DNA of 41,959 nucleotides from Boothiomyces macroporosus. Lineage: Eukaryota > Chytridiomycota > Chytridiomycetes > Rhizophydiales > Terramycetaceae. Positions 1,232-39,812 of the stretch are shown here, one piece after another; positions within the stretch are counted from its first letter, which is position 1, and the number at the start of each line of letters is the position of its first letter. The DNA is taken from positions 1-41,959 of the forward strand of contig JADGKB010000115.1 in the NCBI GenBank assembly GCA_027604185.1, written 5' to 3'. Under the pieces are notes generated by a model. That model had not been told where the DNA came from. It was given only the letters and a program-made list of their open reading frames with translations, and did no database searches. The position numbers were made by a program, and so were the translations under genes.

Positions 1232-3182
1232 TTATTCAATGATTTTCTTTTCCTTTAATCTCTGCAATGCTGCCTTCTTCATTTCCTTCTTTTCACTTCT
1301 GTTCAAAGCCTTCTTTTCAACTTCTGGCCCTGGCTTTGGCAAAACAGGCTTCTTTTTCTTCTTTTCTACAGTCAATTCTACATTAAATGATAATTACCTT
1401 GCATAATCTTTTCATCTTCGTCATCGTTAAATGTGACTGGCTTTTCTACCTTTTCAACAGTAGGTTTATCTTCTTTTTCTTTGGCTTTGAAAGTGTTGCT
1501 GGTTTTTTGAAGTTTGGCTACAAAGAAACCGTCCATGTTATGAGTATGGGGATAGTATCTCTTTGTCAAGTTCATGTTTTGGTGGAATCTCTGTCCACGG
1601 AAGTTGGTGAATCCATCCTTTCCGAACTCTAAACCAGTAGGTACTAGTTTAACGTTTGGACGTTTTTGAAGGGCATATTGAATAACTTGTTCGTTCTCTT
1701 CTACAGTAATGGAGCAGGTAGAGTAAACCAAGTAGCCGCCAGTTTTTGAATTTGCATCTATCGAATCAATAGCAGCCAGAATTAATTCTTTTTGAACGTG
1801 GGTCAAAAATTGGAAATCTTCTTTGCTCTTGTTCAACTTTACACTTGCATCCTTGGAAATGACCCCAGTACCAGAACATGGAGCATCTAGCAATATACGG
1901 TCAAATCCACCGATAATTTCTGGGAATTCCCTTCCATCATAGTTGCAGACAACTGTATTTCTTATCCCTAGACGGTGAACGTTACCAATTAGCGCCTTCA
2001 TTCTATCTTTGCTGATATCATTTGCAAATACACATCCAGTATTTTTCATTAAAGACGCAATATAAGTAGTTTTACCACCTGGTGCTGCACACATATCCAA
2101 GACTCGTTCATGTTCTTGAGGTGCAAGGGCCATGACTGGCAAGAATGAAGCTGCTGCTTGAAGCATATAATGCCCAGCAAGATATTCTGGAGTGGCACCA
2201 ATAGGTACAGGAGAATCAAATATTTGAATCCCGACTTTGGACCATTTACCAATAGGTTCCAAGTTCACACCTCTGTTAATCAACGCTTGTGCCAAATCCC
2301 TTCTTCTTGTTTTAAGAGTGTTTGCTCTGATAACAACTGGTCTTGGGACTTCGTTCGCTTCAAAGAATTCCACGACTTCAGAAAGAGGGAACAGGTGGAA
2401 TAGCATTTCAACCAAGAACAAATTATATCCATAGTAAAGTGCAATATCTTTGAGTAATTGGTCGACATATTCTGAACGGGATCTACATTAAACTAATTTT
2501 ACCTGTCAGGATCTCTTAAATCATTGAAATTACTAAGAGTACGGATAATTTCACTGATTCTAGCATGAACGACAGTAATATCTTCTGCTTCGTCTTCTTC
2601 GCCTTCACCCTTAGGCTCAGGAAGAATCAACTTTTCTCTTTGTTCGATATTGTCGAGCATTTCTTGATTGGCCAATTCTTCATCTTCCAAATCTTTTTCA
2701 TCTTCCAATTCAGCTTGCTTTTCAAATTCAGTAGGCCCTTCATCGTCAGAGTCGTCAAACATTTGTCTGACTTCCATATCTTCATCAGAATCGGCATTGG
2801 AGTCTTCTACTTCAATATCTGAAGGTATATCTTCTTCGTCCTCTTCAATAACTGGCTCGTCATCATCGAAAGCCGGTTCTTCATCTTCTTCCAATTGTTC
2901 AAATTCGTCTTCTCCTTCGAATTCATCCGCGCCTTCAAAGTCATCCTCACCTCCAAAGTCATCCATCTCTTCAAATTGTTCAGATTCCTCCGATTCTGGT
3001 TCAGGCTTCTTTTTTCCCTTTCCATTCTTCTGAGTTTGCTTTCCATTCGTTTCAACTCTTTGGATTTTATTTGGCTGCTCCAATTCTGGATTCTTTTTTC
3101 TCTTGAGCTTGTTGAATAGCTCATCAGACAGTGGAAGTGGGTCTCTCTGCTTGTTCTTTGCCTGTCTACTTCTGTTTCCCAT
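1232..3182 (-). CDS. NOP2: NOP2/NSUN1 rRNA (cytosine-C5)-methyltransferase
   Basis: Exons on the minus strand are 3182-2503, 2482-1398 and 1377-1232. The two introns are 20 nt each, and splicing gives 636 residues. Residues 1-190 are basic and then strongly acidic (long Glu/Asp runs), typical of nucleolar Nop2. From about residue 230 the RsmB/NOL1-type methyltransferase domain follows. It includes the SAM-binding segment VLDMCAAPGGKTTY near 354-367, DAPCSGTG with Cys429, and STCS with Cys483; Cys429 and Cys483 are the two family catalytic cysteines. The lysine-rich tail is encoded mainly by exon 3. By homology the protein methylates 25S/28S rRNA and is needed for 60S subunit assembly in the nucleolus. 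The stop codon lies within AATAAA. The gene diverges from the PDCD2L-like gene across a 150-bp gap. Confidence 0.95.
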
Positions 3183-3332: not shown

Positions 3333-4211
3333 ATGCAAGTTGGATTTGTAGGTTCGTCAACAAACGAAGATGTGGATAAAATTGGAGGAGAACCATATGG
3401 TATAAAGAATCCAGCATGTCCGCATTGCTCCAAGATATGTTTTTTGCTCACTCAAATTTATTCCATGGACAGGACAATTTTAGTATTCATATGTCCCAAT
3501 AATCCTTGCAAATAGTATGTTGTATTTCATAGTAGTGTGGTATCATTCAGAATCAATTTGAAAATTACAATTGTTGAGCAAGTTAAAGTAACCAAGGCTG
3601 AGCCGTTGTTCAAAGTAGAGAGTTGGTCAGATTCTGAAGACGATACGCCAGATATAACGAACCAGAGTAAGGAAATTACCATGAATCAAACCAGTTACAA
3701 GACAATTGAGCTCGATTTATTTGAAACTGATTCGAAATTTCCTTGCTTTGAACTGTATTTTGAAAACGAAACAAGAGCAAAAGAGTCATATACATATGAA
3801 CAGAAACTACTTGAAGAATATTTAAAAAACAATCCGCAAGATGAGCAGATATTGAACGGTAAAGTGGAAGAAGGCGAATGGAACGAGGATTACGAACCAG
3901 CAGACCTTTCGATGAAGCTCTTTAAAAAGTTTACAAAGACTATACAGTTCAATCCTACTCAAGTTATGAGATACGAGTACAAAGGAAAGCCATTGTATTA
4001 CAAACGCTTGGAGAATATTCCAGACTGTCCGTGCGGTGCCAAGAGGGTATTTGAATTCCAAATAATGCCATATGTGCTGACTATCATACAAAAGATTGAC
4101 CAAGTCCAAGACTTTATCGATAATGGATTGGATTTTGGAACAATATTGGTCTTTGTATGTGAAAAGGATTGTGACAACCAGACAGAATTTGCAGTTGCTC
4201 AATCAGATTAA
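3333..4211 (+). CDS. PDCD2L: PDCD2L/TSR4-like ribosome-assembly protein
   Basis: Exon 1 is 3333-3514 and exon 2 runs from 3533 (or 3536) to 4211, giving 286 (or 285) residues. The N-terminal part has the family's KIGG...CPHC segment (here KIGGEPYGIKNPACPHC) and a second Cys pair in CPNNPC. The C-terminal half carries the hallmark VMRYEYKGKPLYY, then CPCGAKRVFEFQIMPYVL and a final LDFGTILVFVCEKDC segment. No MYND finger is visible in the middle, so PDCD2L/yeast Tsr4 fits better than PDCD2. Family members act as chaperones for ribosomal protein uS5 in 40S biogenesis. AATAAA overlaps the stop codon. The single intron has an ambiguous acceptor. Confidence 0.9.
3515..3535 (+). other. ultra-short intron with tandem acceptor in the PDCD2L-like gene
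   Basis: The donor GTATGT at 3515 is followed by TAGTAG, so the intron could be 18 nt (ending 3532) or 21 nt (ending 3535). Both keep the frame and differ by one serine after CKY. Without splicing, an in-frame TAG forms across the donor site, so unspliced RNA would terminate there. Confidence 0.7.
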
Positions 4212-14516: not shown

Positions 14517-17403
14517 TTAGGAAACTGAATTGATTGCTTCCTTGAGCAGTCCAATGCCATCAATCTTCTTTTTAGCAATTAGTCTTTGACTATTGCCAAA
14601 GATTTTCAAATCAGTTTGTTCAAGGCCATTGCTCAATAACAAGTCTGTAACATTTCCTTGCATTTCATTGGGGCCAATGATCAATACGATTTGGGATTTG
14701 GATCTCGTGTAGTCCCATAAATCATTGAGCATCTTCTTTATAATATTTTCATCTATTCTACCTCCAATACAATTCCCAAAGGTTTCTGATTGCTCGAGAT
14801 CCTCTTTTGTGAGCAAGTGGAGAATGGAAAACTCTATTGGGTATGAAAGTAGAGCATGAGATACGATATCTTTACCAAAAATATCCTTTTGACTTTTGCA
14901 TGTGTTTAATACCGCCAATTTGGTGGGTGTGGGTGGGAATGTGATTGAGAGAGGGAACATTCCCTTGTTGTTTGTGGTCATGTTTAAGCCATATGCCCAA
15001 CCTTCTCCAATAATATGGTTGAAAACAACCACATAGTCTCCTCTTGAAATAAACAATTCATCCCGCTGAGCAGGTATATATCCTTGCCATGCCTATATTA
15101 GCAACTAAATACCTGTAAAGGCACGTTCGTTTGTAGAAAAAGTGATTGTATCAATGCTAAAGAGACTGTGAATCCAGAACCGCCTGTGATGCACAATATG
15201 GAATCAAAATTAGCGAGATTGGAGAATCTAGTTTGGAATCCACTATAACCACTAATAAGAGTCGATGTTTCACTAGCAGTGTCTTTGATGGAATAGTATG
15301 GATTGAATATTGGATCTCCAAAAGGACCGCTAATTTGGAATTGTCTTTTTCCAGGCTCTTGTTCAGTGAGGAATCGAGATACATTTCCTTCTGGATATGA
15401 TTTCACATAAATTTCAAATGCATTCAAATCATTAGTGACTGGAGTATAATGGCACTGCTGATATTGCCTATTATAAAAGTATCTAATCAAAACAGATTGG
15501 CCAGGCAGGATTTGAGGCTGATGTGTTCGCCTTTCGAAAGGGTACAAGAGTGCAAACTTTATCCTGTATATAGGATTAGATTGAGAAGAATTTTCCAATG
15601 TTTTTGAGACGATCGCGTATCTCCGATTTTCGTACTTGTCAAATCTAGTTTCAGTTGTGTTTGTTGTGAGTTCCCCAACAATCATTTGAGATAGTTTCTT
15701 GATTGCGAGTCTGGAATGCACATGAGTTCTTCTGGCTTTTAATACAGCATCCCATTCAGACTTGCTAATCGACAGTGGTGCTTGCTCTTGTTCTGGAGTG
15801 TATTTTGGTTTCTTGTCAATGCTAATTCTCTTTTCTTGCTGACTTTCTTTGGTTGGGGTAAAAGTCCTTTTTCGAGGCAGTTGTTCTATAGTACGAGGAA
15901 TGAAGCCCTCAATGTCGAATCCACTCTCGTTGAAATAATCAGGAGTAATATCAGTTCCAGCAACAGAGCGTAGGATGATAGAACCGCCAGGATGGTTGTT
16001 TAACCAGCTATTGATTTGAATGACATATTTTCCTTCCGCGACTACTAGCAAATTGTCTTTTTCCATTTCTTCAGCAATATCTTTCCAAGTGTAAAACTTT
16101 GGTTTATCACTGATAACAGAAAGTACTGGATCTCTTTTGTTTTCAATTTTCTGCAACTTGTTTCCAATCCTTTTGTACTTGATGCCTGGCAATTCAAACC
16201 TGTATTTGCGATATAGCTCTGCTAGAACAAATAGCAGTAGCCAAAATATAGCATTGATAAAGTAGGTAATCCAGTATCCAACACCCCTAAATTTGAGTTC
16301 TTCCCACGGATAAAGCACTTGTAATCCCAGGGCAGCTTGAATGAAAGCAACAACTACAAGCACCCTTCCTAGCCATCGATGCCCTCCTGTTATCCAAGCA
16401 ATCTTTTTCGACTCAATCAGCTTGTTTTCAACAATCATTGACCTTCTATGGGCCATGCCCAAGAAACCTATTTTAAGGTTTATTTACCTTGCACGTATGT
16501 GAACGCAACAACAGTCAATCCAACAATAGAGTGTGGGCGCAAGACAGTTCCATACGCTGAATTAGAAACACCGTTATCAGGCAGGGTTAAAATCATGTAG
16601 ATTGCAGATGCAGCCATGCCTACATATGAGCCAATACTCTGAATACTCATGTGCATTGTGATCCAACCAGTCAAAAATCTGAAATATCTCGTTACAAACA
16701 ATGACATTGGGAATAAAAACATCCATATTATTGACATTGACAGTGCATGAACTTGCTTGGCAAAAAGACCATCTGGAACAGAATAATCAACGGTGGCCGT
16801 GTTGTAATTGATAAATGTTCTTCCTCTGTTGATTCCATGAGAAAACATCCATCCGTTTTTACCTGCTGGATTTGGATCAGTGTTGAAAGCCCACAATTGC
16901 GCAACTTGCTCCATTTCTAAAACTCTATGCAGGTTGTCATTAACGTTGGTAACTCTTTTAAATTCAACGATAGCAATGTTCCTATCCAAATCGCATGTTT
17001 GCTTCATGTTATCCAAGATGAAGACTTTGGAAAAAGGAGTGTTGACTGGAGGCTCGTAACCACCAGTTGAGACTGACTCCATTACATTTGGAGTACTAGC
17101 GCCTCGTGGGCAGTGGGCAATCAAAAACTCTGCTGTCAACATTGATTTTCCAAAGCCTAATCCAAACCACATTCCAGTAATATTGGTATTGGGGAAAACG
17201 GACGAATGCTGAGTGCCATTAAAGACCAGTGCTCCATGAAGAGTTTCATTTGGTGTATCTGGATCTTCAATTGACCAATAATACTGATAGCCTCTACCCA
17301 ATGTGAACTTGTCAATTCCAAAGTCAAATTGCGATAGGAATGGGTCTGACGATAGGGAGTTCGCTGCTGCCACGGCTGCAACCAATGTGTTGATGATTAT
17401 CAT
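14517..17403 (-). CDS. DOMON-cytochrome b561-cytochrome b5-flavin reductase fusion (protein A, copy 1)
   Basis: Exons are 17403-16488, 16467-15113 and 15092-14517, with two 20-nt introns, giving 948 residues. A signal peptide (1-14) precedes a DOMON domain (about 25-200). The cytochrome b561 membrane region (about 215-390) has four candidate heme histidines at 219, 251, 291 and 335. Cytochrome b5 follows, with HPGG at 464-467. A ferredoxin-reductase-like FAD/NAD module fills about 575-948 (GPFGDP near 686, ITGGSGF near 740). This layout predicts transfer of electrons from cytosolic NAD(P)H across a membrane to the extracytoplasmic DOMON heme, perhaps for metal or wall redox chemistry. Oddities are a b5 core that appears interrupted by an insertion, and CHYT where RxYT is expected. 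A close paralogue lies just upstream. Confidence 0.88.
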
Positions 17404-17509
17404 GGTTCTAATTCTATTTTTTTGAAAAACTGTTGTAGCCAAAATGTCAGGGATCTACTGCGCCGTAAAGGGTTCTCAATGGGTAGAATTAAGATTAAAA
17501 CTCGTTTAT

Positions 17510-20357
17510 TCATTTTATCTCGTTTGAAAAAATTACAATATCTCTTTGGTCTACGCCAACCGAGAGTAGAAGATCGACTACTGTTCCCTGCATTGAGTTT
17601 GGTCCAACAACCACTATCTTTTGCCTTTGGGTTCTGTTAAAGTCCCAGAGATCAGAAACTAGTGCGCCAATGATATTTCTGTCTATTCGACCGTTTCCAC
17701 ACACGCCATAGGTTTCCAGTGAAGGTGGATAGGATTTTCTGGTAAATGTGTTCAGAATGGAAAGCTCGATAGGATAAGACAAAAGTGCATGAGAGGTGAT
17801 CTCTTGGCCAAATATCTCTTCCTTCTTGCGGCAAGTGTTTAAAAGAGCTATTTTTGTAGCTTGAAGTGGGAATGTCACCGCAAGTGGGAATACTCCTGAT
17901 TGATTAGTGGTCATGTTTAGGCCATAGCACCAGCCATCATAAAAGTGAGTGAATACCATCAAATAATCACCGCTTGTTACAAATAGTTCATCACGATTTT
18001 CGGGGATGTAGTTTTGCCAGGTCTGCAATGGAATATTTGTTGGCAAGAGTAAAGAATGAATCAGTGCCAATGAAACGGAATACCCAGTACCACCCGTAAT
18101 ACATATAATTGTGTCATAGTTTGCATTCACCATGTTATGGAATGAAAGAGAGTTTCTATTATCCATAGTGCTATATCGATTGAACGTATTGACGGAGCTA
18201 CTTCTGTTATTATTAAGCGCAAGAGGCATGGCCGGATCAACTACTGGGTCGCCAAAAGGCCCGCTGATTTGGAATTGCCTATCGCCCGGCTCTTGATCAC
18301 ACAAGAATTTCGATACATTGCCATCAGCATATGCTTTGACAAAGATTTCAAAAGTATTGAGTTCAGAGTTGACTGGAGTGTAGTAATTTTGGTGGTACTT
18401 TCCATTCTTAAAGTACTTGATCAACACACTTTGGCCAGGCAGTATTTTTGGTTGATTAGCTCTGATATCAAACGGATATAGGATGGAAAACTTGATTCTG
18501 TATATGGGCGACTCTGATTTTGATTCCAGCGTTTTAGCGACTATCGCATATCTTCGTGGCTCGAAAACGTCAAATTTGATTTCATCCTTGTTGGTTGCAA
18601 TTTCCCCTACGACTAATTGAGACAGTTTTTGAATTGCAATTCTAGAATGTACATGAGTTCTACGAGCGCGTAACACATGCTTCCATTCAGATTCGGTGAT
18701 CAAACTTGGATCCAAGTCAAAATCATGCTTAAATACTGGTCTTTGGCCCAAACTGGCGACACTGCCTCTCTTTGTGACTTCAGAGCTAATAGGTTGATAG
18801 GCTTTCTTTTTGTTTGACTTTTGGATTGGTTTTGGAATAAATGACTCAATGTCAAACCCACTTTCGTTGAAATAGTCTTGAGTGATGTCTGTTCCTGCAA
18901 CTGAATTTAAAATCAGCGCTCCTCCAGGGTGACTGTTGATCCATTTATCAATTCGAATTACGTACTTTCCTTCAGCAACCACTAACCAGTCTCCATTTTG
19001 CAAGGCTTCCCCGATTTCTTTCCATGTGTAAGACTTTAAGTTGTGCTCTTTTGGTATCAAAGGCTCAGCACTCCCATCAAGTTTCCTTAGGCGATTTCCT
19101 ACTTTTTCGTACTTGAAACCCGGTAGCTGCAATCGATACTGTTTGTAGATTTCCGCCACTACATATATAATCACCCAGAAAGACAGGTCAATAAAATACA
19201 GAATCCATGCCAACAGTCCCCTGAATTTCACTTCCTCCCAAGGAAAGAGTACATTGAGCCCTAGTCCTGCTTGAACAAACGCGGCAAGTAAGAGTGCTCT
19301 TCCAAGCCAGTGGTGTACCGTTGATACCCACCAAAATCTACTTCTGTCAATGTTGATGGATTCAATCTTCAGGGAAAGTCGATTTGCAATACCAAAGAAG
19401 CCTTGAACGTAGGTAAATCCAACTATAAACAGACCAGTCAACGAATGCGGCCTTAATATTGTTCCATAGTAAGTATTTGAAATATTTTCGGGCAAGCTAA
19501 AGATTACATATAGAGCGGAAGCCATTACACCAATGAATGAACCAGCAGCTTGAATAAATACGTGAATCTTCATCCACCTAAAGTTAGAAAAATATTACTG
19601 ATTGAGGAATTTAAAGTAACGAGTAACGAATATTGAAATTGGGAAAAGGAATAGCCAAATTGATGCCATTGCTATAGCGTGAACTCTTTTTTCAAATAAT
19701 CCATCAGGCACAGATAGATTGATATCAGAGGAGAGGTAGTTGATAAATGTCCGTCCTCTATAGATGCCATGCCAGTACATCCATCCATCTGAATTAGCAA
19801 TCAAACTTACTTTTACCAGCCGGGTCAGGATTGAGATTAAACGCCCACAACTGAGGAATTCTTGTTACATCCAAATTTCGATGTAACCCGTCATTTGGAC
19901 TGGTGATTCTAGTAAATTCAACGATTGCAACGTTTCTAGTAACATCACAAACTTGCGTCATTGTAGCCAAATTGAATACTTTGTTGTTTGGGGAGGGTAT
20001 TGGCGGGGCATAACCTCCAGGATTAATGGCTTCAATCACAGTAGGTTTTGTAGCGCCTTCCTTACAGTAAGCTACCAAAAATTCCCCAGTCAGCATACTT
20101 TGTCCATATGCCATTCCAAACCAAATGCCTTCGACTGAGGTGTTTGGTGTGTCCAACGAATACTGAGTGCCATTGAATACCATGGCTCCATGAATAGTCT
20201 CGTTCGGTGTCCCTAAATTCAGAACACTCCAGTAGAACTGATAGCCCAAACTGTCATCAAAAGTGTTTGCAACAAATTCAAACTTTGATAGCAGAGGGTC
20301 TGGATTGCTGTTTTTGATACAGAATATTAAACCTGCTAGTAGTAAAGTATATATCAT
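17510..20357 (-). CDS. DOMON-cytochrome b561-cytochrome b5-flavin reductase fusion (protein B, copy 1)
   Basis: Exons are 20357-19811, 19788-19599 and 19577-17510, with introns of 22 and 21 nt, giving 934 residues. Domain order equals protein A: signal peptide (MIYTLLLAGLIFC), DOMON (about 20-195), b561 membrane region with histidines in RVHAIAM, KIHVF, RPHS and VHHWLGR, b5 with HPGG at 462-465, then the FAD/NAD module. The second b5 ligand is probably His556 in THVHSRIAIQKLSQ, after an insert unlike that of protein A. The FAD motif reads NYYT instead of RxYT, and the C-terminal segment VVVGPNSMQ lacks the cysteine of the usual CGPxxM. Its second intron interrupts the b561 region, whereas protein A is continuous there, so introns have been gained or lost since duplication. 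The stop is followed at once by AATAAA. Confidence 0.88.
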
Positions 20358-20867
20358 GAATTATAATTATGAAACTTTTTTGGCTTGGGGTTTTAAATGG
20401 ATTTCTCCCAAGGCTGAATCCCACCCAAGTTGAAGGCGAAGTGGATGGTTGTACAGACAATGACGTCACCAATTAACTCATCCACGAATGAAAAGAATGA
20501 GCGACTGAGATCTACAACCATCGCACGATTGCAAATATCAATTTGCTATAATTGCTTGCAAATTGTTTTTTGATTTTGATTAATGCCCGCGGGCTCATTT
20601 TCTAAAATCTTTCGTGCACTTGCTGGGCTGGCGTAACCTAAAGAATGATACACCCGAGTTGTGCCAGGTGAACAGTGATGAAATTTCGAAACTCAAATAC
20701 AGAATATCTCAAGGTCTGAAATATTTGTTTTCAATCGTGATGGCTTATTCATATCACTATGTATTCTAAATTCTGGATGGGAGTGACCCAACTTTGAATT
20801 TAAAATGATCTATAATAGGTTTACACTCAAAGAATTTTTAACAACAAACAAACGCGTCATTTCAAGG
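20358..20867. promoter_or_regulatory. 510-bp divergent promoter of redox gene B and CC2D2A, with CRE site
   Basis: The region separates the start of protein B (minus) from CC2D2A (plus) and contains no gene. A perfect 8-bp cAMP-response element, TGACGTCA, lies at 20461-20468, about 105 nt upstream of gene B. In fungi this palindrome is bound by ATF/CREB-type bZIP factors active in stress and redox responses, which would suit gene B. No clear X-box (RFX site) for the ciliary gene was found. Confidence 0.45.
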
Positions 20868-23800
20868 ATGAATACACAGCGCCAACAACTGATAGATAGA
20901 GTGAGGCAGAGGCTTCGCGAACAAAAAGAAAGAGGATTAAGTGGAATTACTGAACTTGTAGCACAGTATTAATCCAGGAAAAAGATGAAGCGGCAGAAAT
21001 CAGATATAGAAGAACAAGTTTGATTGATAATCTGGCGAAAATACCTTCAGCTGCTCAAATTCCAACCCACCCACCTCCAGCTCATGAAGGGGACGATGTC
21101 ATTACACCTTTACCACTAAAGGAACAAAGCAAAACCGTCAACCCAGTGGTTCAAAAGGCTCCATCCTTTCAGATGAAACGAAACGTACTTGGAATTAACC
21201 AAAGGATTCGCATATATCTTCCGCCAGTTCAAATCTTAATTTAATGAGAAATGTATAAATTATTAACCAAGAACTCTAACCGCAAACTAGTAGCTAGCAG
21301 AGTAAATACATACTAATCCAGTCATTGAATAAGTTATTGGAAAGAGGGGTGACACTTTGCGACTATGCCTTCAATGGAGTGCAAATAATGCCATTGGTGC
21401 CAACGGTAGAGCCAGATATAGTCAAAAGGAGGAAAGCATTAATGAAAAAGAAAAAGAAAGGAAACAGTGTAGTATTTACTCTTGATGGTATTTGTTCTTT
21501 TACAAAGAACTCGAGGAAATCAATGAAATTGAAGAGCTTTATTCCCCAATGGGAATGACGGAACTACAAAAATGGTCTCCAAACTCAACTTTTACATCTG
21601 AGCAGGTAATTTTATGCTAATGAGATTACCCCTTACACGTTTTACTATCCAACCCCATTAGAACTGAATAAGGATGTGAAAACAATAGTGAATTTAAACT
21701 AATCCAGAAATCTAAGCGAGATGAAGGCTTTTACGAAGGTGATATACCTGTGATTAGCACATGGAACTATGACAGACTTCTAAGACGATTGGCGATAACT
21801 AAGCACAACAGGTAATAATCGCTAATTTTTGCTCGTGGTTCACCAGTCCAGTGACTTTAAACATATTGCCTGATCCATTAAACTATATACACTATAAGGC
21901 TTTACCAGACTTGTCTCTTTGTGGAAATATCGAATCTGGACCAGGATTTTGCGAAACAGTACTTACAAAAGCTTCATTGTCCAATGCTAACCAAGTACTT
22001 TCGGAAACCCTTATGCTTGTTGTTAATTTATCAAGCGTTGAATTTGAAAACCATCCATTAATGCTCCAAGAAACAAAGCTGTGTATAAAACTAGAGAAAT
22101 TAGTTCATGCATATCAGCAGCGAAAAAAGAATAACAACATTGACTATTTGACGGCAAAGATTGAAGCTATTAGGGCAACTTTAGCTGAAGAACACATGCA
22201 TTTGGAAACTCTTCGCTACACTCCTTCATTATCAGATGAGAATCTTAGTCCACGGAAAGCTTCTCTTCGTCTGGGGAAAATGGAATCCGAGAGATCAAGG
22301 CTGGAGAAGAATCAAGAAGATAAAATCATCCAACTTTTAAAAGACATCTTTGCCCATCGAAAACTCAGAGTAAATTTCTTTTATACAGGATTCTGAATGC
22401 AAAATCAATCGAGATTTGGAATACAAAATCGTAAAGTGCTGGGAGGATATAAAAGCTGCTCGAGCACACCAAGGATTTACTTCAAATGATTTGAAACTGT
22501 CAATCAAATTGAAAAAGAGAAAAAAGGTGCACTAAAAGTAACTGTAGAATATGATTTCGATAGACGTTGAGCTAGAAAATGAGCTAAGTGAATACAATGA
22601 TTTGTATGAAATTGAATACCAACAGGAATTGCGAGAATATCAAAAGAAAGCTGGTACTAGCGGTATTTCGAAAGCTTCATCTTTAAAGCGAATTGACGAA
22701 GATGATGAAAAGAACTTTTCAGACTCTGATTTACTGATTAAAAAGGATGATTCAATAGGATTTATACACTCTAAATCCAGCTTGGGAATAGAGCCAACAA
22801 AGAAAACAGTTTCCAAATCAGTGAAATCGTCAATTATGAAGAGACTAAGAAAATCTCATCCCTCAAAAGATAGCCATATTCTTGATTTTACATTGGACCA
22901 TTCGACACCAGTTACTATCCTTATGGAGTGCCCAGAGGTAGTTTAAACTAAAAATAGGCTGAACAATTCCGTAGGAAAAGGCAAGAGAACACGTTTGTCC
23001 ACGTTGTGCTAAAGTTCAACAACAAAACAATCACACAAACTGTGCCTAAGCAATTGCAAAACGACTTTTTCATCAAGTTTAACGGAGTTTGTGATTTGGC
23101 AGACATGAAAAATACGATTGATGCTGAAAATGCGGACCACGGAACAGCTTTTTGCATTCAAATACGTGAAGTACCAAGGTCAATGCAAGTGCACATTTAT
23201 GAGACTGTAACTTATTATTGATACAATAGTCTACATTAGGAACGAAAGCAATCTGTAAAGTTGATGTGCCCTTGCCTGCAAAATCAGACTTTTCAACGGC
23301 ACTAGATAGAGAATTAAATGAAATTGAATTTGCTGGCGATTCTTTTGAAGATCCGGCAAATTATTCATTTTTAAGACACGGAAATGTCAGTGGATTGCTT
23401 TCTGCAAATGTTTCCTGGGGTGCGTCAGACGAACGAGAAGTAACCACAAAAGATTTGATGTAACTCAATTATAACCTAGCCCTAAAAAGACTCACCCGCT
23501 TGGTGATCCTTTGAGCTTTCATGGGCCGGTTGGATTGCTAAACATTCCTAAAATGATTGAATGGCTTGGGAAAACAGCAGTAGATCCGAATGATCCAAGA
23601 AATCAAAACCTATTACAGATTAAGCAATTATTTGATACTGTCTATGGTCACTCCAAAAGCGCTGTTCTACACAATTCGCCATGCTTTTTTAGAGAAAATA
23701 TTCCAAATTGGCTTCATGAGCTAACCCTTGGTGTTGGGGTAATATTTCTTTGACCAAGGTTCAAATTACTTCAAATATTGCTAAAAGATTTCAAGTGTTA

Positions 23801-25941
23801 AGAGACAGGTTTGACAGAAAGATTGTGCTGGATCAACCTGTTCCCCTTCACTTTACTGATCAGGTAATTGAAGCCATTACTGTTCCAAATTCACAGCGTG
23901 ATTTAACTGTAAGTGTTGCTTACTTTAGGAAGAAGAAACAGTGAAAAAGTGGAGTTCCAGAAGTAATTTGGAAAAGATTCATGATACACCAACAGATTTA
24001 GGTTTTCTCAAAAGAATCCGAGAACTCCAACTGATAAGAAAGCTTTCGTTGGAAAAACCAAAAACAGTTGACGATTATGTGCGAGAAGAGAGAATAGCCC
24101 CAGCTCCAGAAGCCGAATTTGACCTGTTTGCTCTATTTCGTCCTCTAAGACCGTTAAATCCATACAGGAACAAAAAATCAAATATAACAACATCAAAAGT
24201 AGAGCACTGTATTATTTCTGTACAAATTTTGCAAGGATTAAACTTCCCAGCCCGGCAGCAAGAAATCCCAGAAGCAAATCATATCAAGCTAAAACCATTT
24301 ATCGAAGTATCCTTCCAAAAGAATAAAATCAAGTCTAATGTAAGTGATGGAGAACAGCCACTATGGAACCAAACAATGTTTTTGAAGGTTCAGGCACCAA
24401 ATGGAGATTTCAGTCCAGAGGCGTTAATGGAAACGGATTTAGCAACTGAAATACTGTATATTAATATTTTTGATGAAATTACTGTGGATTTATTGGAAGA
24501 CAAAAGGGATAGGGACAGAACAACTTATGTAAGAAGGGATCGTGTTTGGATAGGTAGTGTAAAAATTCCGTTTTGCTTCATTTGGGAAAGAGCAAGGGTA
24601 ACTTTGTGTTTATACTAGATTGACGGATATTTCCCTGTATCTCATCCATGTACGCTTTTAGGATATGAATTTAAAGACACTGAAGAATCTCTGCCTAGAG
24701 TAGAATTGATTCAAAGGAGCCAATTGCACATGTTCATTACTCTAGATCCGCCTTTGAATCAACCAAGGAATTTGATATTCAAAGTATATATTGTTAACTC
24801 TAGTTCCAAACGGATGAAGACCCAAAGTTTTTAAAGCATTGCACTAGTTGGCAGGAAACCGCAAAGTATCCGGGGAGGCATGCGTTGGCAGTAACTCATG
24901 ATATGGACGGAAAGACCACATTTATTTGCAAATACATCAGACCACAGAATCCCCCATCATCAATGACAACTATTCCGCAAATCTTACGATTCGTTTCAAT
25001 GATTCCATTTCTGCCAAATAGATCCGTTTTTGCAATGACATGCTATTTGTGGGCAACATCGGATCAAATACTGAATATTGGGGCAGCGGATGCAATTGAG
25101 CACGCAATTCTATTGTGCAACTATTTTGTATATTTGGGTTACAACGCATGGGTAATATTGGGAAATGGTATTTTGGAAGGAAAGACAGCAGCTGTGATTG
25201 TTCAACAAGATAATATTGATGTTCCACTGAAAGAGCAAAAAGCAATGTACAGATTGTACCATCCTATGTCTGGCAAGTCTTTCTACATTGACGACAAACT
25301 TTTCCCTCTAATGGAAATTGATCTCGTGTTTAATCATGAAAATGTAAGTTATAACTGACTCAGATTTGGCTCAATATTCAACAAGATTACTCACCTGACA
25401 AAGTCAAGTACAACTTTTCCGATGCAACTTGTTGGAGGGCATTCTTTGGACATGGATCACATAGGCCTTCTCTGTCAAGCATTCAGGTATAGATGCGTTA
25501 ATTCAGCCTCCATTGCTAAGTTATGAAGAGGTCTCAAAGAAATGGTGTTCAGATTTGGAGTGGAAACTCGAAAAGGCAATAGTATCCAAATTTGAAGAGT
25601 GGAGAAAGGGCAACGTAACTAGATGGAATAGGTTGTGCAGCAGATCCCTCAAAGCTTTAATCAGCCGCTTCGAAGAAAATATTTTGGGAGAAGTGCCTTT
25701 GTCGAAAATCATTTTAGACTCTAGCGAATTAAGCTCGATTGGTAAAGTATACAAGCTGAATGGGCATCCGATTAATTTACCATACACTGATATTCCTTCA
25801 GCGTGTGATGCAATATTCAACACAGAAATTCATACCAACGTGTCTCAAGGGGTGGAATTCGCCTTGGCAGTCCATGTGGATGGCTACACCTCCCATATAG
25901 CTAGCGTATGGATATTCTTGACTTCTCTCTTGAAAAAATAA
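20868..25941 (+). CDS. CC2D2A: CC2D2A ciliary transition-zone protein (copy 1)
   Basis: Twenty exons join into an open 1558-residue frame: 20868-20957, 20978-21184, 21205-21252, 21272-21301, 21322-21487, 21508-21605, 21625-21687, 21708-21811, 21847-22369, 22389-22526, 22548-22937, 22958-23206, 23230-23459, 23480-23738, 23759-23908, 23929-24597, 24619-24783, 24804-25343, 25364-25486, 25507-25941. The animal protein has about 1620 residues. Recognisable parts are CWEDIKAARAHQGFTSNDLK, the N-terminal C2-like region (about 620-760), VDPNDPRN, the C2 domain (about 1008-1135), and the inactive transglutaminase-like end (FVSMIPFLPN, AILLCNYFVYLGYNAWVILGN, final VEFALAVHVDGY). CC2D2A belongs to the MKS module at the ciliary base. 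The stop lies in AATAAA. The first four exons are the least certain. Confidence 0.92.
21812..21846 (+). other. 35-nt intron of CC2D2A, the only long one
   Basis: It starts GTAATAATCGCTAAT and has no AG before the acceptor at 21845-21846. It is the only intron here outside the 18-23 nt range. Its branch-like GCTAAT lies 20 nt or more from the acceptor, unlike the about 5-8 nt seen in the others. It joins codons ...KHNR/S and PVTLNILPD in frame. Confidence 0.65.
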
Positions 25942-26025
25942 AAAGATCTGATTTTGATAGTAAACAATGTGTTGGTTACAATGTAAATGTTGTTGATCAC
26001 GTCACATTCACTTTCCCTTTGACAC

Positions 26026-27045: not shown

Positions 27046-27085
27046 ATCATTTTGCATTTTTTTAAAACGAAATTTATAGCAATAT

Positions 27086-28029
27086 TCAAGCAGAATCTGC
27101 GGCACTGAGTACCTTTTGGATCTGTTCTTGGTCAGGTCTTTCGGCAATTTGCTTGCCCAACGAATCAGTCAGAATTGCTTTTTCCAATTTCAACTTTGTT
27201 TCTTGCAAGGCTGGTGAGACATTAGATTCTAAATTAGATATATAAACACCTTTTAGAATGTTTAATTCTTCCAGCCTGGTTACGGATGGTCTCTTGGCCA
27301 TGTTCTTTTTCAATTCATCTGTTGCCAAAGATTTTTCCAGGTCAATCTGTGGTCCTAGTAAAGCAGGTGCCAATTTATCATAGTTTTCTGGCAAAATGTT
27401 TCTGTCAATCAGTGATTGGGCGTCTGGTCTACGTAACTGCGTTTGGTTGATCTTATCGACCACAAGCGATTTTTCCAATTCCACAGTAGGCCCAAGCAAT
27501 GCTGGAGCTACTTTTTCAGACATTTCTGGCAAGATGTTCCTATCAATCAATTCTGATTTTGAAGGTCTTCGTGATCTATTTAGCTTGTCCGCGACAATGG
27601 ATTTTTCAAGATCAAGTGCAGTACCTAGCAAACTAGGCGAAATTTTATCATAGTTCTCTGGTAAAATGTTCTGGGCAATCAATTCTTTTTTAGAAGGTCG
27701 TCGGGTTTGGTTGAGTTTATCAGCCAAAAGGGATTTCTCCAACTCTTTCGCGGCAGCTTGTAATTTCGGAGCAACAGGAGAATCAACGATAATGTTAATA
27801 TTGACAAGGTCGGACTTTTCTGGTCTGCTTTCCAAGGAATTTTTGACGGCGAGGTTCTTTAGTGCGAGATCCAAATCGACCGCTTTTGATTGTAACCCTG
27901 GATCTACACTGTAATCTGCGTAAATAACCACTAGTACCTTTTAAGATGTTTTGATCAATCAACTACTGATAAGCTTGCCCTTACCTGCCGAGTAGAAGGT
28001 CGGTTTTCGAGCTTTTCTTGCAAATCCAT
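27086..28029 (-). CDS. multi-RPEL actin-binding protein (copy 1)
   Basis: Exons are 28029-27985, 27962-27938 and 27915-27086, with two 22-nt introns, giving 299 residues. The protein consists almost entirely of RPEL motifs, the G-actin-binding element of MRTF and Phactr proteins. Cores are RPSTRQLIDQNIL, RPEKSDLVNINII, RPSKKELIAQNIL, RPSKSELIDRNIL, RPDAQSLIDRNIL and RPSVTRLEELNIL, plus a degenerate seventh, RPDQEQIQKVL. Between them lie spacers such as PALLGPTVELEKSL. No SAP, leucine-zipper or phosphatase-binding domain is visible. A role as a scaffold or buffer binding several G-actin monomers is inferred. The first RPEL is split between exon 1 and a 25-nt microexon. The gene starts only 60 bp from the repeat junction, so its promoter may be incomplete in this arrangement. 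Confidence 0.88.
27938..27962 (-). other. 25-nt microexon of the RPEL gene
   Basis: On the minus strand this exon encodes LIDQNILK plus one base. It lies between introns at 27963-27984 and 27916-27937, each 22 nt. Its inclusion completes the first RPEL motif (LENRPSTRQ joined to LIDQNILK) and keeps the frame, which is strong evidence that it is real. Confidence 0.85.
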
Positions 28030-28088
28030 TTTCACCTTTTGGTCAGGAAAACTCGTGGATACCACGATTCTATTAAAAAAGTGGTTCA

Positions 28089-28379
28089 ACAACAGAATAC
28101 TCTAAACAAAAAGTTTACGAACTGAATTGGCAGAACGTGCCAGTGATGCGGAGAACATCTGATGATTATATGAATGCTTCAAATATATTGCAAGCTGCCA
28201 AAGTCCCAAAAGAAAAGAGAAAGAAAATAATCAAGAAACTTTGTTCATTAGTGCCGTTTGAACGAATCGAAGAAGGATATTATAAATACCAAGGTGTTTG
28301 GGTTCCTTTGAAAGCTGCCAAGTCACTGGCGGAACGATGGAACGTATATGAATACATTAAACCAATATTTGATAAATAA
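28089..28379 (+). pseudogene. 5'-truncated APSES gene at the repeat junction
   Basis: The duplication breakpoint cuts the APSES gene at codon 73, so this copy keeps residues 73-168, which is essentially the whole DNA-binding domain. Reading upstream through the junction in frame reaches a TAA at 28074 with no ATG. The first in-frame ATG is at 28146 (Met92 of the intact protein) and would give a 77-residue fragment. It lacks the original promoter and faces the RPEL gene start 60 bp away, head to head. Confidence 0.85.
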
Positions 28380-28387
28380 ATGATATA

Positions 28388-31274: not shown

Positions 31275-31380
31275 GGTTCTAATTCTATTTTTTTGAAAAA
31301 CTGTTGTAGCCAAAATGTCAGGGATCTACTGCGCCGTAAAGGGTTCTCAATGGGTAGAATTAAGATTAAAACTCGTTTAT

Positions 31381-34738: not shown

Positions 34739-37700
34739 ATGAATACACAGCGCCAACAACTGATAGATAGAGTGAGGCAGAGGCTTCGCGAACAAAAAGA
34801 AAGAGGATTAAGTGGAATTACTGAACTTGTAGCACAGTATTAATCCAGGAAAAAGATGAAGCGGCAGAAATCAGATATAGAAGAACAAGTTTGATTGATA
34901 ATCTGGCGAAAATACCTTCAGCTGCTCAAATTCCAACCCACCCACCTCCAGCTCATGAAGGGGACGATGTCATTACACCTTTACCACTAAAGGAACAAAG
35001 CAAAACCGTCAACCCAGTGGTTCAAAAGGCTCCATCCTTTCAGATGAAACGAAACGTACTTGGAATTAACCAAAGGATTCGCATATATCTTCCGCCAGTT
35101 CAAATCTTAATTTAATGAGAAATGTATAAATTATTAACCAAGAACTCTAACCGCAAACTAGTAGCTAGCAGAGTAAATACATACTAATCCAGTCATTGAA
35201 TAAGTTATTGGAAAGAGGGGTGACACTTTGCGACTATGCCTTCAATGGAGTGCAAATAATGCCATTGGTGCCAACGGTAGAGCCAGATATAGTCAAAAGG
35301 AGGAAAGCATTAATGAAAAAGAAAAAGAAAGGAAACAGTGTAGTATTTACTCTTGATGGTATTTGTTCTTTTACAAAGAACTCGAGGAAATCAATGAAAT
35401 TGAAGAGCTTTATTCCCCAATGGGAATGACGGAACTACAAAAATGGTCTCCAAACTCAACTTTTACATCTGAGCAGGTAATTTTATGCTAATGAGATTAC
35501 CCCTTACACGTTTTACTATCCAACCCCATTAGAACTGAATAAGGATGTGAAAACAATAGTGAATTTAAACTAATCCAGAAATCTAAGCGAGATGAAGGCT
35601 TTTACGAAGGTGATATACCTGTGATTAGCACATGGAACTATGACAGACTTCTAAGACGATTGGCGATAACTAAGCACAACAGGTAATAATCGCTAATTTT
35701 TGCTCGTGGTTCACCAGTCCAGTGACTTTAAACATATTGCCTGATCCATTAAACTATATACACTATAAGGCTTTACCAGACTTGTCTCTTTGTGGAAATA
35801 TCGAATCTGGACCAGGATTTTGCGAAACAGTACTTACAAAAGCTTCATTGTCCAATGCTAACCAAGTACTTTCGGAAACCCTTATGCTTGTTGTTAATTT
35901 ATCAAGCGTTGAATTTGAAAACCATCCATTAATGCTCCAAGAAACAAAGCTGTGTATAAAACTAGAGAAATTAGTTCATGCATATCAGCAGCGAAAAAAG
36001 AATAACAACATTGACTATTTGACGGCAAAGATTGAAGCTATTAGGGCAACTTTAGCTGAAGAACACATGCATTTGGAAACTCTTCGCTACACTCCTTCAT
36101 TATCAGATGAGAATCTTAGTCCACGGAAAGCTTCTCTTCGTCTGGGGAAAATGGAATCCGAGAGATCAAGGCTGGAGAAGAATCAAGAAGATAAAATCAT
36201 CCAACTTTTAAAAGACATCTTTGCCCATCGAAAACTCAGAGTAAATTTCTTTTATACAGGATTCTGAATGCAAAATCAATCGAGATTTGGAATACAAAAT
36301 CGTAAAGTGCTGGGAGGATATAAAAGCTGCTCGAGCACACCAAGGATTTACTTCAAATGATTTGAAACTGTCAATCAAATTGAAAAAGAGAAAAAAGGTG
36401 CACTAAAAGTAACTGTAGAATATGATTTCGATAGACGTTGAGCTAGAAAATGAGCTAAGTGAATACAATGATTTGTATGAAATTGAATACCAACAGGAAT
36501 TGCGAGAATATCAAAAGAAAGCTGGTACTAGCGGTATTTCGAAAGCTTCATCTTTAAAGCGAATTGACGAAGATGATGAAAAGAACTTTTCAGACTCTGA
36601 TTTACTGATTAAAAAGGATGATTCAATAGGATTTATACACTCTAAATCCAGCTTGGGAATAGAGCCAACAAAGAAAACAGTTTCCAAATCAGTGAAATCG
36701 TCAATTATGAAGAGACTAAGAAAATCTCATCCCTCAAAAGATAGCCATATTCTTGATTTTACATTGGACCATTCGACACCAGTTACTATCCTTATGGAGT
36801 GCCCAGAGGTAGTTTAAACTAAAAATAGGCTGAACAATTCCGTAGGAAAAGGCAAGAGAACACGTTTGTCCACGTTGTGCTAAAGTTCAACAACAAAACA
36901 ATCACACAAACTGTGCCTAAGCAATTGCAAAACGACTTTTTCATCAAGTTTAACGGAGTTTGTGATTTGGCAGACATGAAAAATACGATTGATGCTGAAA
37001 ATGCGGACCACGGAACAGCTTTTTGCATTCAAATACGTGAAGTACCAAGGTCAATGCAAGTGCACATTTATGAGACTGTAACTTATTATTGATACAATAG
37101 TCTACATTAGGAACGAAAGCAATCTGTAAAGTTGATGTGCCCTTGCCTGCAAAATCAGACTTTTCAACGGCACTAGATAGAGAATTAAATGAAATTGAAT
37201 TTGCTGGCGATTCTTTTGAAGATCCGGCAAATTATTCATTTTTAAGACACGGAAATGTCAGTGGATTGCTTTCTGCAAATGTTTCCTGGGGTGCGTCAGA
37301 CGAACGAGAAGTAACCACAAAAGATTTGATGTAACTCAATTATAACCTAGCCCTAAAAAGACTCACCCGCTTGGTGATCCTTTGAGCTTTCATGGGCCGG
37401 TTGGATTGCTAAACATTCCTAAAATGATTGAATGGCTTGGGAAAACAGCAGTAGATCCGAATGATCCAAGAAATCAAAACCTATTACAGATTAAGCAATT
37501 ATTTGATACTGTCTATGGTCACTCCAAAAGCGCTGTTCTACACAATTCGCCATGCTTTTTTAGAGAAAATATTCCAAATTGGCTTCATGAGCTAACCCTT
37601 GGTGTTGGGGTAATATTTCTTTGACCAAGGTTCAAATTACTTCAAATATTGCTAAAAGATTTCAAGTGTTAAGAGACAGGTTTGACAGAAAGATTGTGCT

Positions 37701-39812
37701 GGATCAACCTGTTCCCCTTCACTTTACTGATCAGGTAATTGAAGCCATTACTGTTCCAAATTCACAGCGTGATTTAACTGTAAGTGTTGCTTACTTTAGG
37801 AAGAAGAAACAGTGAAAAAGTGGAGTTCCAGAAGTAATTTGGAAAAGATTCATGATACACCAACAGATTTAGGTTTTCTCAAAAGAATCCGAGAACTCCA
37901 ACTGATAAGAAAGCTTTCGTTGGAAAAACCAAAAACAGTTGACGATTATGTGCGAGAAGAGAGAATAGCCCCAGCTCCAGAAGCCGAATTTGACCTGTTT
38001 GCTCTATTTCGTCCTCTAAGACCGTTAAATCCATACAGGAACAAAAAATCAAATATAACAACATCAAAAGTAGAGCACTGTATTATTTCTGTACAAATTT
38101 TGCAAGGATTAAACTTCCCAGCCCGGCAGCAAGAAATCCCAGAAGCAAATCATATCAAGCTAAAACCATTTATCGAAGTATCCTTCCAAAAGAATAAAAT
38201 CAAGTCTAATGTAAGTGATGGAGAACAGCCACTATGGAACCAAACAATGTTTTTGAAGGTTCAGGCACCAAATGGAGATTTCAGTCCAGAGGCGTTAATG
38301 GAAACGGATTTAGCAACTGAAATACTGTATATTAATATTTTTGATGAAATTACTGTGGATTTATTGGAAGACAAAAGGGATAGGGACAGAACAACTTATG
38401 TAAGAAGGGATCGTGTTTGGATAGGTAGTGTAAAAATTCCGTTTTGCTTCATTTGGGAAAGAGCAAGGGTAACTTTGTGTTTATACTAGATTGACGGATA
38501 TTTCCCTGTATCTCATCCATGTACGCTTTTAGGATATGAATTTAAAGACACTGAAGAATCTCTGCCTAGAGTAGAATTGATTCAAAGGAGCCAATTGCAC
38601 ATGTTCATTACTCTAGATCCGCCTTTGAATCAACCAAGGAATTTGATATTCAAAGTATATATTGTTAACTCTAGTTCCAAACGGATGAAGACCCAAAGTT
38701 TTTAAAGCATTGCACTAGTTGGCAGGAAACCGCAAAGTATCCGGGGAGGCATGCGTTGGCAGTAACTCATGATATGGACGGAAAGACCACATTTATTTGC
38801 AAATACATCAGACCACAGAATCCCCCATCATCAATGACAACTATTCCGCAAATCTTACGATTCGTTTCAATGATTCCATTTCTGCCAAATAGATCCGTTT
38901 TTGCAATGACATGCTATTTGTGGGCAACATCGGATCAAATACTGAATATTGGGGCAGCGGATGCAATTGAGCACGCAATTCTATTGTGCAACTATTTTGT
39001 ATATTTGGGTTACAACGCATGGGTAATATTGGGAAATGGTATTTTGGAAGGAAAGACAGCAGCTGTGATTGTTCAACAAGATAATATTGATGTTCCACTG
39101 AAAGAGCAAAAAGCAATGTACAGATTGTACCATCCTATGTCTGGCAAGTCTTTCTACATTGACGACAAACTTTTCCCTCTAATGGAAATTGATCTCGTGT
39201 TTAATCATGAAAATGTAAGTTATAACTGACTCAGATTTGGCTCAATATTCAACAAGATTACTCACCTGACAAAGTCAAGTACAACTTTTCCGATGCAACT
39301 TGTTGGAGGGCATTCTTTGGACATGGATCACATAGGCCTTCTCTGTCAAGCATTCAGGTATAGATGCGTTAATTCAGCCTCCATTGCTAAGTTATGAAGA
39401 GGTCTCAAAGAAATGGTGTTCAGATTTGGAGTGGAAACTCGAAAAGGCAATAGTATCCAAATTTGAAGAGTGGAGAAAGGGCAACGTAACTAGATGGAAT
39501 AGGTTGTGCAGCAGATCCCTCAAAGCTTTAATCAGCCGCTTCGAAGAAAATATTTTGGGAGAAGTGCCTTTGTCGAAAATCATTTTAGACTCTAGCGAAT
39601 TAAGCTCGATTGGTAAAGTATACAAGCTGAATGGGCATCCGATTAATTTACCATACACTGATATTCCTTCAGCGTGTGATGCAATATTCAACACAGAAAT
39701 TCATACCAACGTGTCTCAAGGGGTGGAATTCGCCTTGGCAGTCCATGTGGATGGCTACACCTCCCATATAGCTAGCGTATGGATATTCTTGACTTCTCTC
39801 TTGAAAAAATAA
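34739..39812 (+). CDS. CC2D2A: CC2D2A ciliary transition-zone protein (copy 2)
   Basis: All 20 exons recur at +13,871 bp, from 34739-34828 to 39378-39812, with identical introns and the same 1558-residue product. The absence of any silent or intronic change against copy 1 argues that the copies are either extremely young or not independent loci. Confidence 0.88.

What the first reader, a model, noticed from the sequence alone, without database searches (positions are those of the whole stretch)
20868..25941. Spliceosomal introns fixed at about 20 nt
Reconstruction of CC2D2A needs 19 introns with lengths 20,20,19,20,20,19,20,35,19,21,20,23,20,20,20,21,20,20,20. Removing them restores a 1558-codon frame that matches CC2D2A throughout. 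NOP2 (20,20), redox A (20,20), redox B (22,21), RPEL (22,22) and the PDCD2L-like gene (18 or 21) agree, so 16 of 28 introns are exactly 20 nt. Nearly all start GTA or GTG, end AG, and carry a TAAT/TAAC/TGAC-like branch motif only about 5-8 nt from the acceptor. Known extremes are chlorarachniophyte nucleomorph introns (18-21 nt) and Stentor introns (15-16 nt). Such uniform shortness in a flagellated fungus-like nucleus would be notable.
Basis: partly seen in the sequence, partly recalled or inferred. Interest (0 to 1): 0.88.

Follow-up and report, generated by a model that had tools for sequence, protein, structure and literature searches.

The report
Twenty-nucleotide introns in a chytrid fungus
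Genes of this swimming-spore (chytrid) fungus are interrupted by spliceosomal introns almost all about 20 letters long, close to the shortest known and about a third of the average in the short-intron fungus Cryptococcus, although the splicing parts we could check look ordinary.

Summary
Confirmed, and genome-wide. The window is a whole contig of a 15.2-Mb genome; a protein match on a contig of identical length identifies it as the chytrid Boothiomyces macroporosus. The 19 CC2D2A introns are present as described and give 1558 codons. A gene model without length or motif preference, on 26 loci (277 kb), finds a GT-AG peak at 19-21 nt that five decoy pairs lack; after training, 317 of 374 introns are at most 24 nt. 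A motif-only scan and a whole-genome pattern (84 of 100 listed matches are 19-22 nt) agree. The branch A mostly lies at position 14-15, 5-6 nt before the 3' G. U1, U2 and U6 are canonical where they pair; Prp8, SF1, U2AF65, Slu7 and Prp18 are present. U2AF65 has lost both RNP1 aromatics of RRM1, kept in 118 of the 120 listed homologues. Public protein models seem to stumble over these introns. The kind is known from ciliates, mikrocytids and nucleomorphs; ten paper searches of an open-licence library listed no fungal case. No RNA evidence was available.

The parts
20868..25941 (+). CC2D2A-like ciliary transition-zone gene, 20 exons, 1558 codons after removal of 19 introns
   Evidence: spliced frame; homologues
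20958..20977 (+). intron 1, 20 nt
21185..21204 (+). intron 2, 20 nt
21253..21271 (+). intron 3, 19 nt
21302..21321 (+). intron 4, 20 nt
21488..21507 (+). intron 5, 20 nt
21606..21624 (+). intron 6, 19 nt (ends GAG)
   Evidence: the following 63-nt exon has a counterpart in Globomyces P0003; the trained gene model fused introns 6 and 7 into one 102-nt call
21688..21707 (+). intron 7, 20 nt (starts GTG)
   Evidence: fused with intron 6 by the gene model
21812..21846 (+). intron 8, 35 nt as GT-AG; possibly 20 nt (21812-21831) with a TG acceptor, which keeps the peptide SWFT found in Terramyces
22370..22388 (+). intron 9, 19 nt
22527..22547 (+). intron 10, 21 nt (starts GTG)
22938..22957 (+). intron 11, 20 nt
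23207..23229 (+). intron 12, 23 nt
23460..23479 (+). intron 13, 20 nt; the public Terramyces protein has eight extra residues here that read like a retained 21-nt intron
23739..23758 (+). intron 14, 20 nt
23909..23928 (+). intron 15, 20 nt
24598..24618 (+). intron 16, 21 nt
24784..24803 (+). intron 17, 20 nt
25344..25363 (+). intron 18, 20 nt
25487..25506 (+). intron 19, 20 nt
2483..2502 (-). NOP2-like gene (1232-3182, -), intron 20 nt
1378..1397 (-). NOP2-like gene, intron 20 nt
3515..3535 (+). PDCD2L-like gene (3333-4211), intron 21 nt (18 nt also ends in AG)
19789..19810 (-). redox gene B intron, 22 nt
19578..19598 (-). redox gene B intron, 21 nt
16468..16487 (-). redox gene A intron, 20 nt
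15093..15112 (-). redox gene A intron, 20 nt
27963..27984 (-). RPEL-repeat gene (27086-28029, -), intron 22 nt
27916..27937 (-). RPEL-repeat gene, intron 22 nt
34739..39812 (+). second, letter-identical copy of the CC2D2A gene, inside the 13,871-bp exact tandem duplication; coordinates are the first copy plus 13,871

Best explanation
These are genuine U2-type (major-spliceosome) introns, shrunk genome-wide to 18-23 nt in the chytrid fungus Boothiomyces macroporosus. Length is held by two short spacings: 5' splice site to branch A (A mostly at position 14-15) and branch A to the last G of the intron (mostly 5-6 nt). Each varies by about one base, which gives 19-21 nt with a mode of 20. The 5' site (GTAWNT) meets a canonical U1 and U6, and the branch motif (YTAAY) meets a canonical U2. 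Only three or four bases lie between branch A and AG in most introns, too few for a polypyrimidine tract, so I infer that the acceptor is simply the AG just after the branch point, with SF1 and U2 doing most of the selection. In keeping with this, U2AF65 survives but has lost the two RNP1 aromatics of RRM1. Shown: intron structure, lengths, spacings, presence of three snRNAs and five splicing proteins. Inferred: that the introns are actually spliced, the recognition order, and the relaxed role of the pyrimidine tract.
For: Flat-length, motif-free model (limit 60 nt): 75 of 176 introns are 19-21 nt; 64 of these 75 carry a branch motif 4-7 nt before the G although the model knew no such motif, against 11 of 83 outside 18-23 nt. 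GT-AG against five decoy pairs, first pass: 69 of 268 in 19-21 nt against 2-9; after five passes 275 of 374 against 1-5. Without a gene model, GTA to YTAAY..HAG at lengths 19/20/21 occurs 54/74/39 times against a mean of 8.6 per length at 30-120. Whole genome: 122 matches of GTAAGTN{0,30}CTAAYNHAG (79 for the reversed pattern); 84 of the 100 listed are 19-22 nt. Spacings: 232 of 300 with the A 5-6 nt before the G, 229 of 300 with it at position 14-15. Removing 6 introns of 19-22 nt gives a 2329-aa Prp8 whose match to human Prp8 spans residues 6-2311. Removing 4 of 19-20 nt gives a U2AF65 matching solved RRM1-RRM2 and UHM chains. snRNAs. SF1, Slu7, Prp18. U2AF65 RNP1.
Against: No RNA reads: splicing itself is inferred. 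The trained length distribution reinforces itself; the untrained passes are the fair ones and contain many scattered, probably false, other lengths. 57 of 374 calls exceed 24 nt; most look false (10 of 57 carry the branch motif against 224 of 315 short ones; random HAG 386 of 5000), but some real longer introns are not excluded. The sample is 1.8% of the genome. U1 scores just under the Rfam cut-off (68.8 against 69.5), and the U2AF65-like locus under its NCBIfam cut-off when read exon by exon (230.7 against 310.3). The two spacings are uncorrelated only in a core of 262 introns; over all 300 with a motif r is -0.88, driven by branch assignments far from the usual place. The RNP1 change is a correlation in one species plus one unnamed sequence (P0013).
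Confidence: 0.88

Rival explanations
1. Same introns, different acceptor mechanism: a U2AF-independent route (for example SPF45/RBM17 replacing U2AF on SF3B1, as described for human short introns) rather than a weakened U2AF still helping to define the AG.
For: PMC8363638 (abstract and passages): human introns with truncated pyrimidine tracts depend on SPF45 and not on U2AF, and efficient U2AF-dependent splicing needs at least eight pyrimidines. Here three or four bases lie between branch A and AG in most introns, and U2AF65 RRM1 RNP1 is altered.
Against: U2AF65 is retained, with RRM2 and the UHM well matched.
Confidence: 0.3
2. The spliceosome is reduced or specialised for tiny introns, as reported for mikrocytids (17-19 proteins found) or Stentor (Slu7 and Prp18 not found).
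For: Tiny introns go with a reduced spliceosome in mikrocytids (PMC10245619, passages), and the Stentor paper's table lists Slu7 and Prp18 as N/A (PMC9505925, passages).
Against: Slu7 (E 2.6e-44), Prp18 (2.3e-50), SF1-HH (3.6e-32), U2AF65-like (1.1e-67) and Prp8 (2.3e-50) all have matches, as do U1, U2 and U6. The other splicing proteins, well over a hundred by recalled counts, were not tested.
Confidence: 0.1
3. Assembly or sequencing artefact: spurious indels or stretches that only look like introns.
For: The assembly shows an exact tandem copy ending at a contig end and other repeated blocks, so it has some structural errors.
Against: Random errors would not start with GTA, end in AG and carry a branch motif at one distance. 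With GTA and YTAAY fixed, AG is the most enriched end (93 against 14.8); TA (84 against 17.6) and CA (34 against 15.9) I read as the same acceptors one base early, with weaker excess for TT (36 against 20.8) and GA (20 against 12.5). The public CC2D2A proteins of JEL0866 and Terramyces mostly run through the junctions without extra residues (by eye); exceptions are JEL0866 at intron 8 and Terramyces at intron 13, where the extra residues read like a retained 21-nt intron.
Confidence: 0.02
4. The segments are not spliced but skipped in translation (bypassing or frameshifting) or removed from DNA like ciliate internal eliminated sequences.
For: Nothing beyond the lack of RNA data here.
Against: GT-AG ends, a branch motif at fixed spacing, and a genome that encodes U1, U2, U6 and the five splicing proteins tested.
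Confidence: 0.02

Closest known systems
Chlorarachniophyte nucleomorph introns (18-21 nt)
   Same: Almost the same length window, numerous introns, narrow distribution (lengths and 'more than 800 in approximately 300 genes' as quoted in PMC10245619, passages).
   Different: That is a relic algal endosymbiont nucleus; this is the nucleus of a chytrid fungus with about 15 Mb of DNA and an estimated 17,000 such introns (extrapolated from 315 in 277 kb).
Heterotrich ciliate introns (Stentor coeruleus, 15-16 nt)
   Same: Fixed branch position and a 3' tail of about 5 nt; SF1 and U2AF subunits listed as found (PMC9505925, passages and section 2.1).
   Different: Here 19-21 nt, branch A at 14-15 instead of 10-11, a clear YTAAY branch consensus where the Stentor paper reports no strong one, and Slu7 and Prp18 present where its table lists none.
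Mikrocytid introns (Mikrocytos mackini, 16-17 nt)
   Same: Uniform tiny spliceosomal introns across a genome (PMC10245619, passages).
   Different: Mikrocytids are parasites with 224 introns and 17-19 splicing proteins found; none of the five splicing proteins tested is missing here.
Paramecium introns (around 25 nt)
   Same: Short and narrow; length given in the abstract of PMC5014332 (start seen in the listing).
   Different: Longer, and a ciliate.
Short introns of other fungi (Cryptococcus neoformans, mean 63 bp)
   Same: Intron-rich fungus with short introns (PMC8476143 section 14).
   Different: About three times longer; that section, from a survey of 644 fungal genomes, names 63 bp as its example of relatively short.

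Membership tests
U2-type spliceosomal introns | GT...AG ends | tested here: met
   GT-AG peak absent from five decoy pairs; of seven donor triplets only GTA exceeds expectation with AG, and of 16 end dinucleotides AG is strongest, TA and CA being the same acceptors one base early
U2-type spliceosomal introns | Branch-point motif near the 3' end | tested here: met
   300 of 315 short introns have one; 232 of 300 with the A 5-6 nt before the G; random same-length GT..AG: 12.9% of 5000 at 5-6
U2-type spliceosomal introns | Genome encodes U1, U2, U6 with canonical pairing regions | tested here: met
   U1 5' end AUACUUACCUG, U2 GUAGUA, U6 ACAGAGA; U1 68.8 bits against a cut-off of 69.5
U2-type spliceosomal introns | Removed from RNA | not testable with these tools
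   No reads; indirect: homologous proteins lack the segments
U12-type introns | U12 snRNA in the genome | tested here: inconclusive
   No hit, but no positive control rang either
Ultra-short-intron lineages (nucleomorph, heterotrich, mikrocytid kind) | Nearly all introns under about 25 nt in a narrow window | tested here: met
   317 of 374 calls at 24 nt or less, 275 at 19-21 nt; whole-genome pattern; the remaining 57 calls are mostly doubtful
Ultra-short-intron lineages (mikrocytid kind) | Strongly reduced spliceosome | tested here: not met
   Prp8, SF1, U2AF65, Slu7, Prp18 all matched; which of these mikrocytids lack was not looked up, and the full inventory was not tested
Ultra-short-intron lineages (heterotrich kind) | Branch A at intron position 10-11 | tested here: not met
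   Position 14-15 in 229 of 300, position 10-11 in 16 of 300

The most novel reading that the evidence does not exclude
A fungus has carried essentially its whole intron set to near the geometric minimum while keeping a conventional spliceosome. Acceptor choice has become a pure distance rule from the branch point, and U2AF65's pyrimidine-tract surface (RRM1) has begun to decay as a consequence. That would make Boothiomyces the first fungal, perhaps first opisthokont, genome of this kind and a system for asking how U1 and U2 can share about 14 nt of RNA.
Probability: 0.4. Interest if true: 0.82.

Novelty: new member of a known kind. Interest (0 to 1): 0.72.

Why it matters
The ultra-short uniform introns I could find in print belong to relic nuclei, reduced parasites or ciliates. 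Here they fill the nucleus of a fungus whose splicing parts, as far as tested, look conventional, which would separate intron shrinkage from spliceosome loss. Lengths this close to the sum of the 5' splice-site and branch helices (recalled structures) set a hard limit on how early complexes can assemble. Gene annotation is also affected: the public U2AF65 protein of this very species lacks a conserved 11-residue stretch, explained by a 52-nt intron where a 19-nt one fits, and two public CC2D2A proteins of relatives lack a 63-nt exon that sits between two tiny introns here (the cause is inferred).

Tried and rejected
Slu7/Prp18 loss was predicted from the short branch-to-acceptor distance and from Stentor; both have matches. 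An in-frame-stop (NMD) test gave 59 of 76 21-nt introns with an in-frame stop against 49 expected, but 27 of 62 against 39 at 19 nt and 81 of 137 against 92 at 20 nt; the gene model prefers to call 3n introns when a stop forces it, so I do not use it. A TG acceptor class was suggested by the 35-nt intron; TG is not enriched overall (17 against 14.9). A first script with a 250-nt intron limit swapped tiny introns for long ones and mis-built CC2D2A. A first motif regex with wrong spacing missed the 5-nt class and was redone. Searching for long calls made of two tiny introns gave 0 of 57; the one known case (19+63+20) ends its first intron in GAG, outside the regex. rRNA for taxonomy failed: RF01960 got no usable answer and RF00002 had no hit. 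A public CC2D2A protein of this species was not among the hits of 857-2726 aa or 428-1361 aa; I do not conclude that none exists. One search stopped with a script error after part of its output and was repeated; I cite base composition and density.
Full report
WHAT WAS CHECKED. A self-trained gene model reproduced 17 of the 19 introns. Where it differed, it fused a 19-nt and a 20-nt intron and the 63-nt exon between them into one 102-nt intron; it also began the gene upstream, at 20805. The public proteins of Boothiomyces sp. JEL0866 and Terramyces lack it.

ORGANISM. The spliced CC2D2A is 81% identical to Boothiomyces sp. JEL0866, 75% to Terramyces and 41% to Globomyces. The U2AF65 of this genome, on contig C2, matches HK103_002678 of Boothiomyces macroporosus at 98%, on a contig of 351,873 bases, exactly the length of C2 here. 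I therefore take the genome to be B. macroporosus: Fungi, Chytridiomycota, Rhizophydiales, Terramycetaceae.

IS THE 20-NT PEAK REAL? A codon-based gene model with flat intron lengths and only the two terminal dinucleotides was run on about 244 kb (all 26 sequences then held, window cut to its first 28,088 bases; lengths 10-100): 51 of 166 GT-AG introns fell at 19-21 nt, against 1-7 for six decoy dinucleotide pairs. After five passes with learned donor, acceptor and length it gave 275 of 374 (317 at 24 nt or less), against 1-5. Training reinforces whatever is there, so the untrained passes matter more: with lengths 10-60 and no motif, 75 of 176 were 19-21 nt, and 64 of those 75 had the branch motif at the right distance, against 11 of 83 introns outside 18-23 nt. 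Without any gene model, GTA followed by YTAAY..HAG peaks at 19, 20 and 21 nt with 54, 74 and 39 cases against a mean of 8.6 per length at 30-120. Of nine other starting strings, GTAA (a subset) and AGT (the same introns one base early) share the peak; GTG, GTT, GTC, ATG, TGA, GAT and TAG do not, GTT having at most a slight excess. Over the whole genome the pattern GTAAGTN{0,30}CTAAYNHAG has 122 matches (79 for the reversed pattern); of the 100 listed, 84 are 19-22 nt although 15-45 nt were allowed (lengths counted). All 26 loci hold introns of 18-23 nt (1 to 25 each).

ANATOMY. Of 315 introns of 17-24 nt, about 90% have A at position +3 and 20% have G at +5. Their ends are TAG 188, CAG 79, AAG 39 and GAG 9; they are 70% A+T; phases 0, 1 and 2 number 126, 93 and 96. 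A branch motif was found in 300 of 315: the A lies 5 or 6 nt before the last G in 232 and at position 14 or 15 in 229. Over all 300 the two spacings are anticorrelated (r = -0.88), because a branch A assigned far from the usual place must trade one spacing for the other. In a core of 262 (38 such cases dropped) their standard deviations are 0.75 and 0.72 and r = -0.07. I read this as two separately fixed spacings. Short-intron density is 1.49 per kb of coding sequence; scaled up, about 17,000 introns (inference; the sample is not random).

MACHINERY. U1, two U2 copies and U6 are present with canonical pairing regions; U12 was not found, without a positive control. Prp8 is 2329 aa after removal of six introns of 19-22 nt; its match to human Prp8 spans residues 6-2311, 2306 residues against 2297 (only the first part of one alignment was printed). 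SF1, U2AF65 (under the NCBIfam cut-off when read exon by exon), Slu7 and Prp18 have matches. The two Slu7 matches, which meet at the same profile position, are 17 bases apart. U2AF65 keeps RRM2 and the UHM, but RNP1 of RRM1 reads EHCHVEF where most relatives read NYAFVEF or NFAFLEF. Of the 120 listed homologues (of 1301; this species' own included), 118 keep aromatics at both positions; the exceptions are B. macroporosus and P0013, a protein from an unnamed record. That RNP1 aromatics contact RNA bases is recalled knowledge.

HOW IT PROBABLY WORKS. With the branch A at 14-15, the stretch paired by U6 at the 5' site and the stretch paired by U2 at the branch point nearly touch (inference from recalled spliceosome structures). 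Three or four bases between branch A and AG leave no pyrimidine tract; human U2AF-dependent splicing is said to need at least eight pyrimidines (PMC8363638, passages). The simplest model is a conventional spliceosome selecting a strong branch site and then the AG at a fixed distance, with U2AF reduced to protein contacts. Whether SPF45 or U2AF35 takes part is open; neither was searched for.

WHAT IS KNOWN. Stentor 15-16 nt (PMC9505925: passages and section 2.1). Mikrocytids 16-17 nt and nucleomorphs 18-21 nt (PMC10245619: passages). Paramecium about 25 nt (PMC5014332: start of abstract in a listing). A survey of 644 fungal genomes gives a Cryptococcus mean of 63 bp as its example of relatively short fungal introns (PMC8476143: passages and section 14). 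Ten paper searches listed, by title and start of abstract, no report of about 20-nt introns in a fungus. Two of them listed only 20 of many papers, and the library holds open-licence papers only, so a report elsewhere is possible.

CONSEQUENCE FOR ANNOTATION, AND A HINT ABOUT RELATIVES. The public U2AF65 protein of this species lacks GMFLLPCHLLK, a stretch with counterparts in Globomyces and Kappamyces. The DNA shows how: a 52-nt GT-AG intron would remove it, a 19-nt one keeps it (the public gene coordinates were not seen). The same protein begins with the sequence of an upstream gene. At the place of our intron 13 the public Terramyces CC2D2A has the extra residues MYLNVYTS; read back into codons in the phase of our intron they fit a 21-base GTA...AG segment without a stop, that is, a retained tiny intron (my back-translation; Terramyces DNA was not seen). 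So the trait probably reaches beyond this species, and tiny introns probably cause further errors in public proteins of the family (inference).

LIMITS. No RNA. The loci cover 1.8% of the genome. Real longer introns may exist among the 57 long calls. The window holds one stretch twice (13,871-bp exact tandem copy); its second copy was left out of the gene-model and motif counts.

Noticed in passing
window 14218-28088 and 28089-41959: A 13,871-bp stretch is repeated head to tail with 100% identity, and the second copy ends exactly at the contig end; probably an assembly artefact.
   Followed up: partly
G000 contigs C20, C2, C49/C100 (outside the window): In C20 one motif and one domain hit each recur 45,067 bases apart; in C2 an identical 19-base match recurs 42,596 bases apart; C49 and C100 share an identical 38-base match. 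This suggests more duplicated blocks in the assembly.
   Followed up: no
L028 (G000:C2 near 122,543), U2AF65 gene: RNP1 of U2AF65 RRM1 has histidines in place of both aromatics; a protein from an unnamed record (P0013) has lost them too.
   Followed up: partly
window 21812-21846: The only CC2D2A intron longer than 23 nt may be a 20-nt intron with a TG acceptor, which would keep the peptide SWFT shared with Terramyces.
   Followed up: partly
public Terramyces CC2D2A (P0002) at the place of intron 13 (window 23460-23479): Extra residues MYLNVYTS look like a translated, retained 21-nt intron, suggesting that Terramyces has tiny introns too (my back-translation).
   Followed up: no
window 4282-4908 and 5629-6159 (-): Two secreted-looking proteins with many DLPVAAPTQAYGQ-like or related repeats, ending in a hydrophobic tail (my reading of the sequences).
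   Followed up: no
window 14517-20357 (-) and 8687-11953 (-): Two tandem pairs of paralogues: large redox-type membrane proteins and multi-span membrane proteins (the description is my reading of the sequences).
   Followed up: no
G000:C80 and C178: Two U2 snRNA genes that differ mainly in the 3' half but share the branch-recognition region.
   Followed up: no
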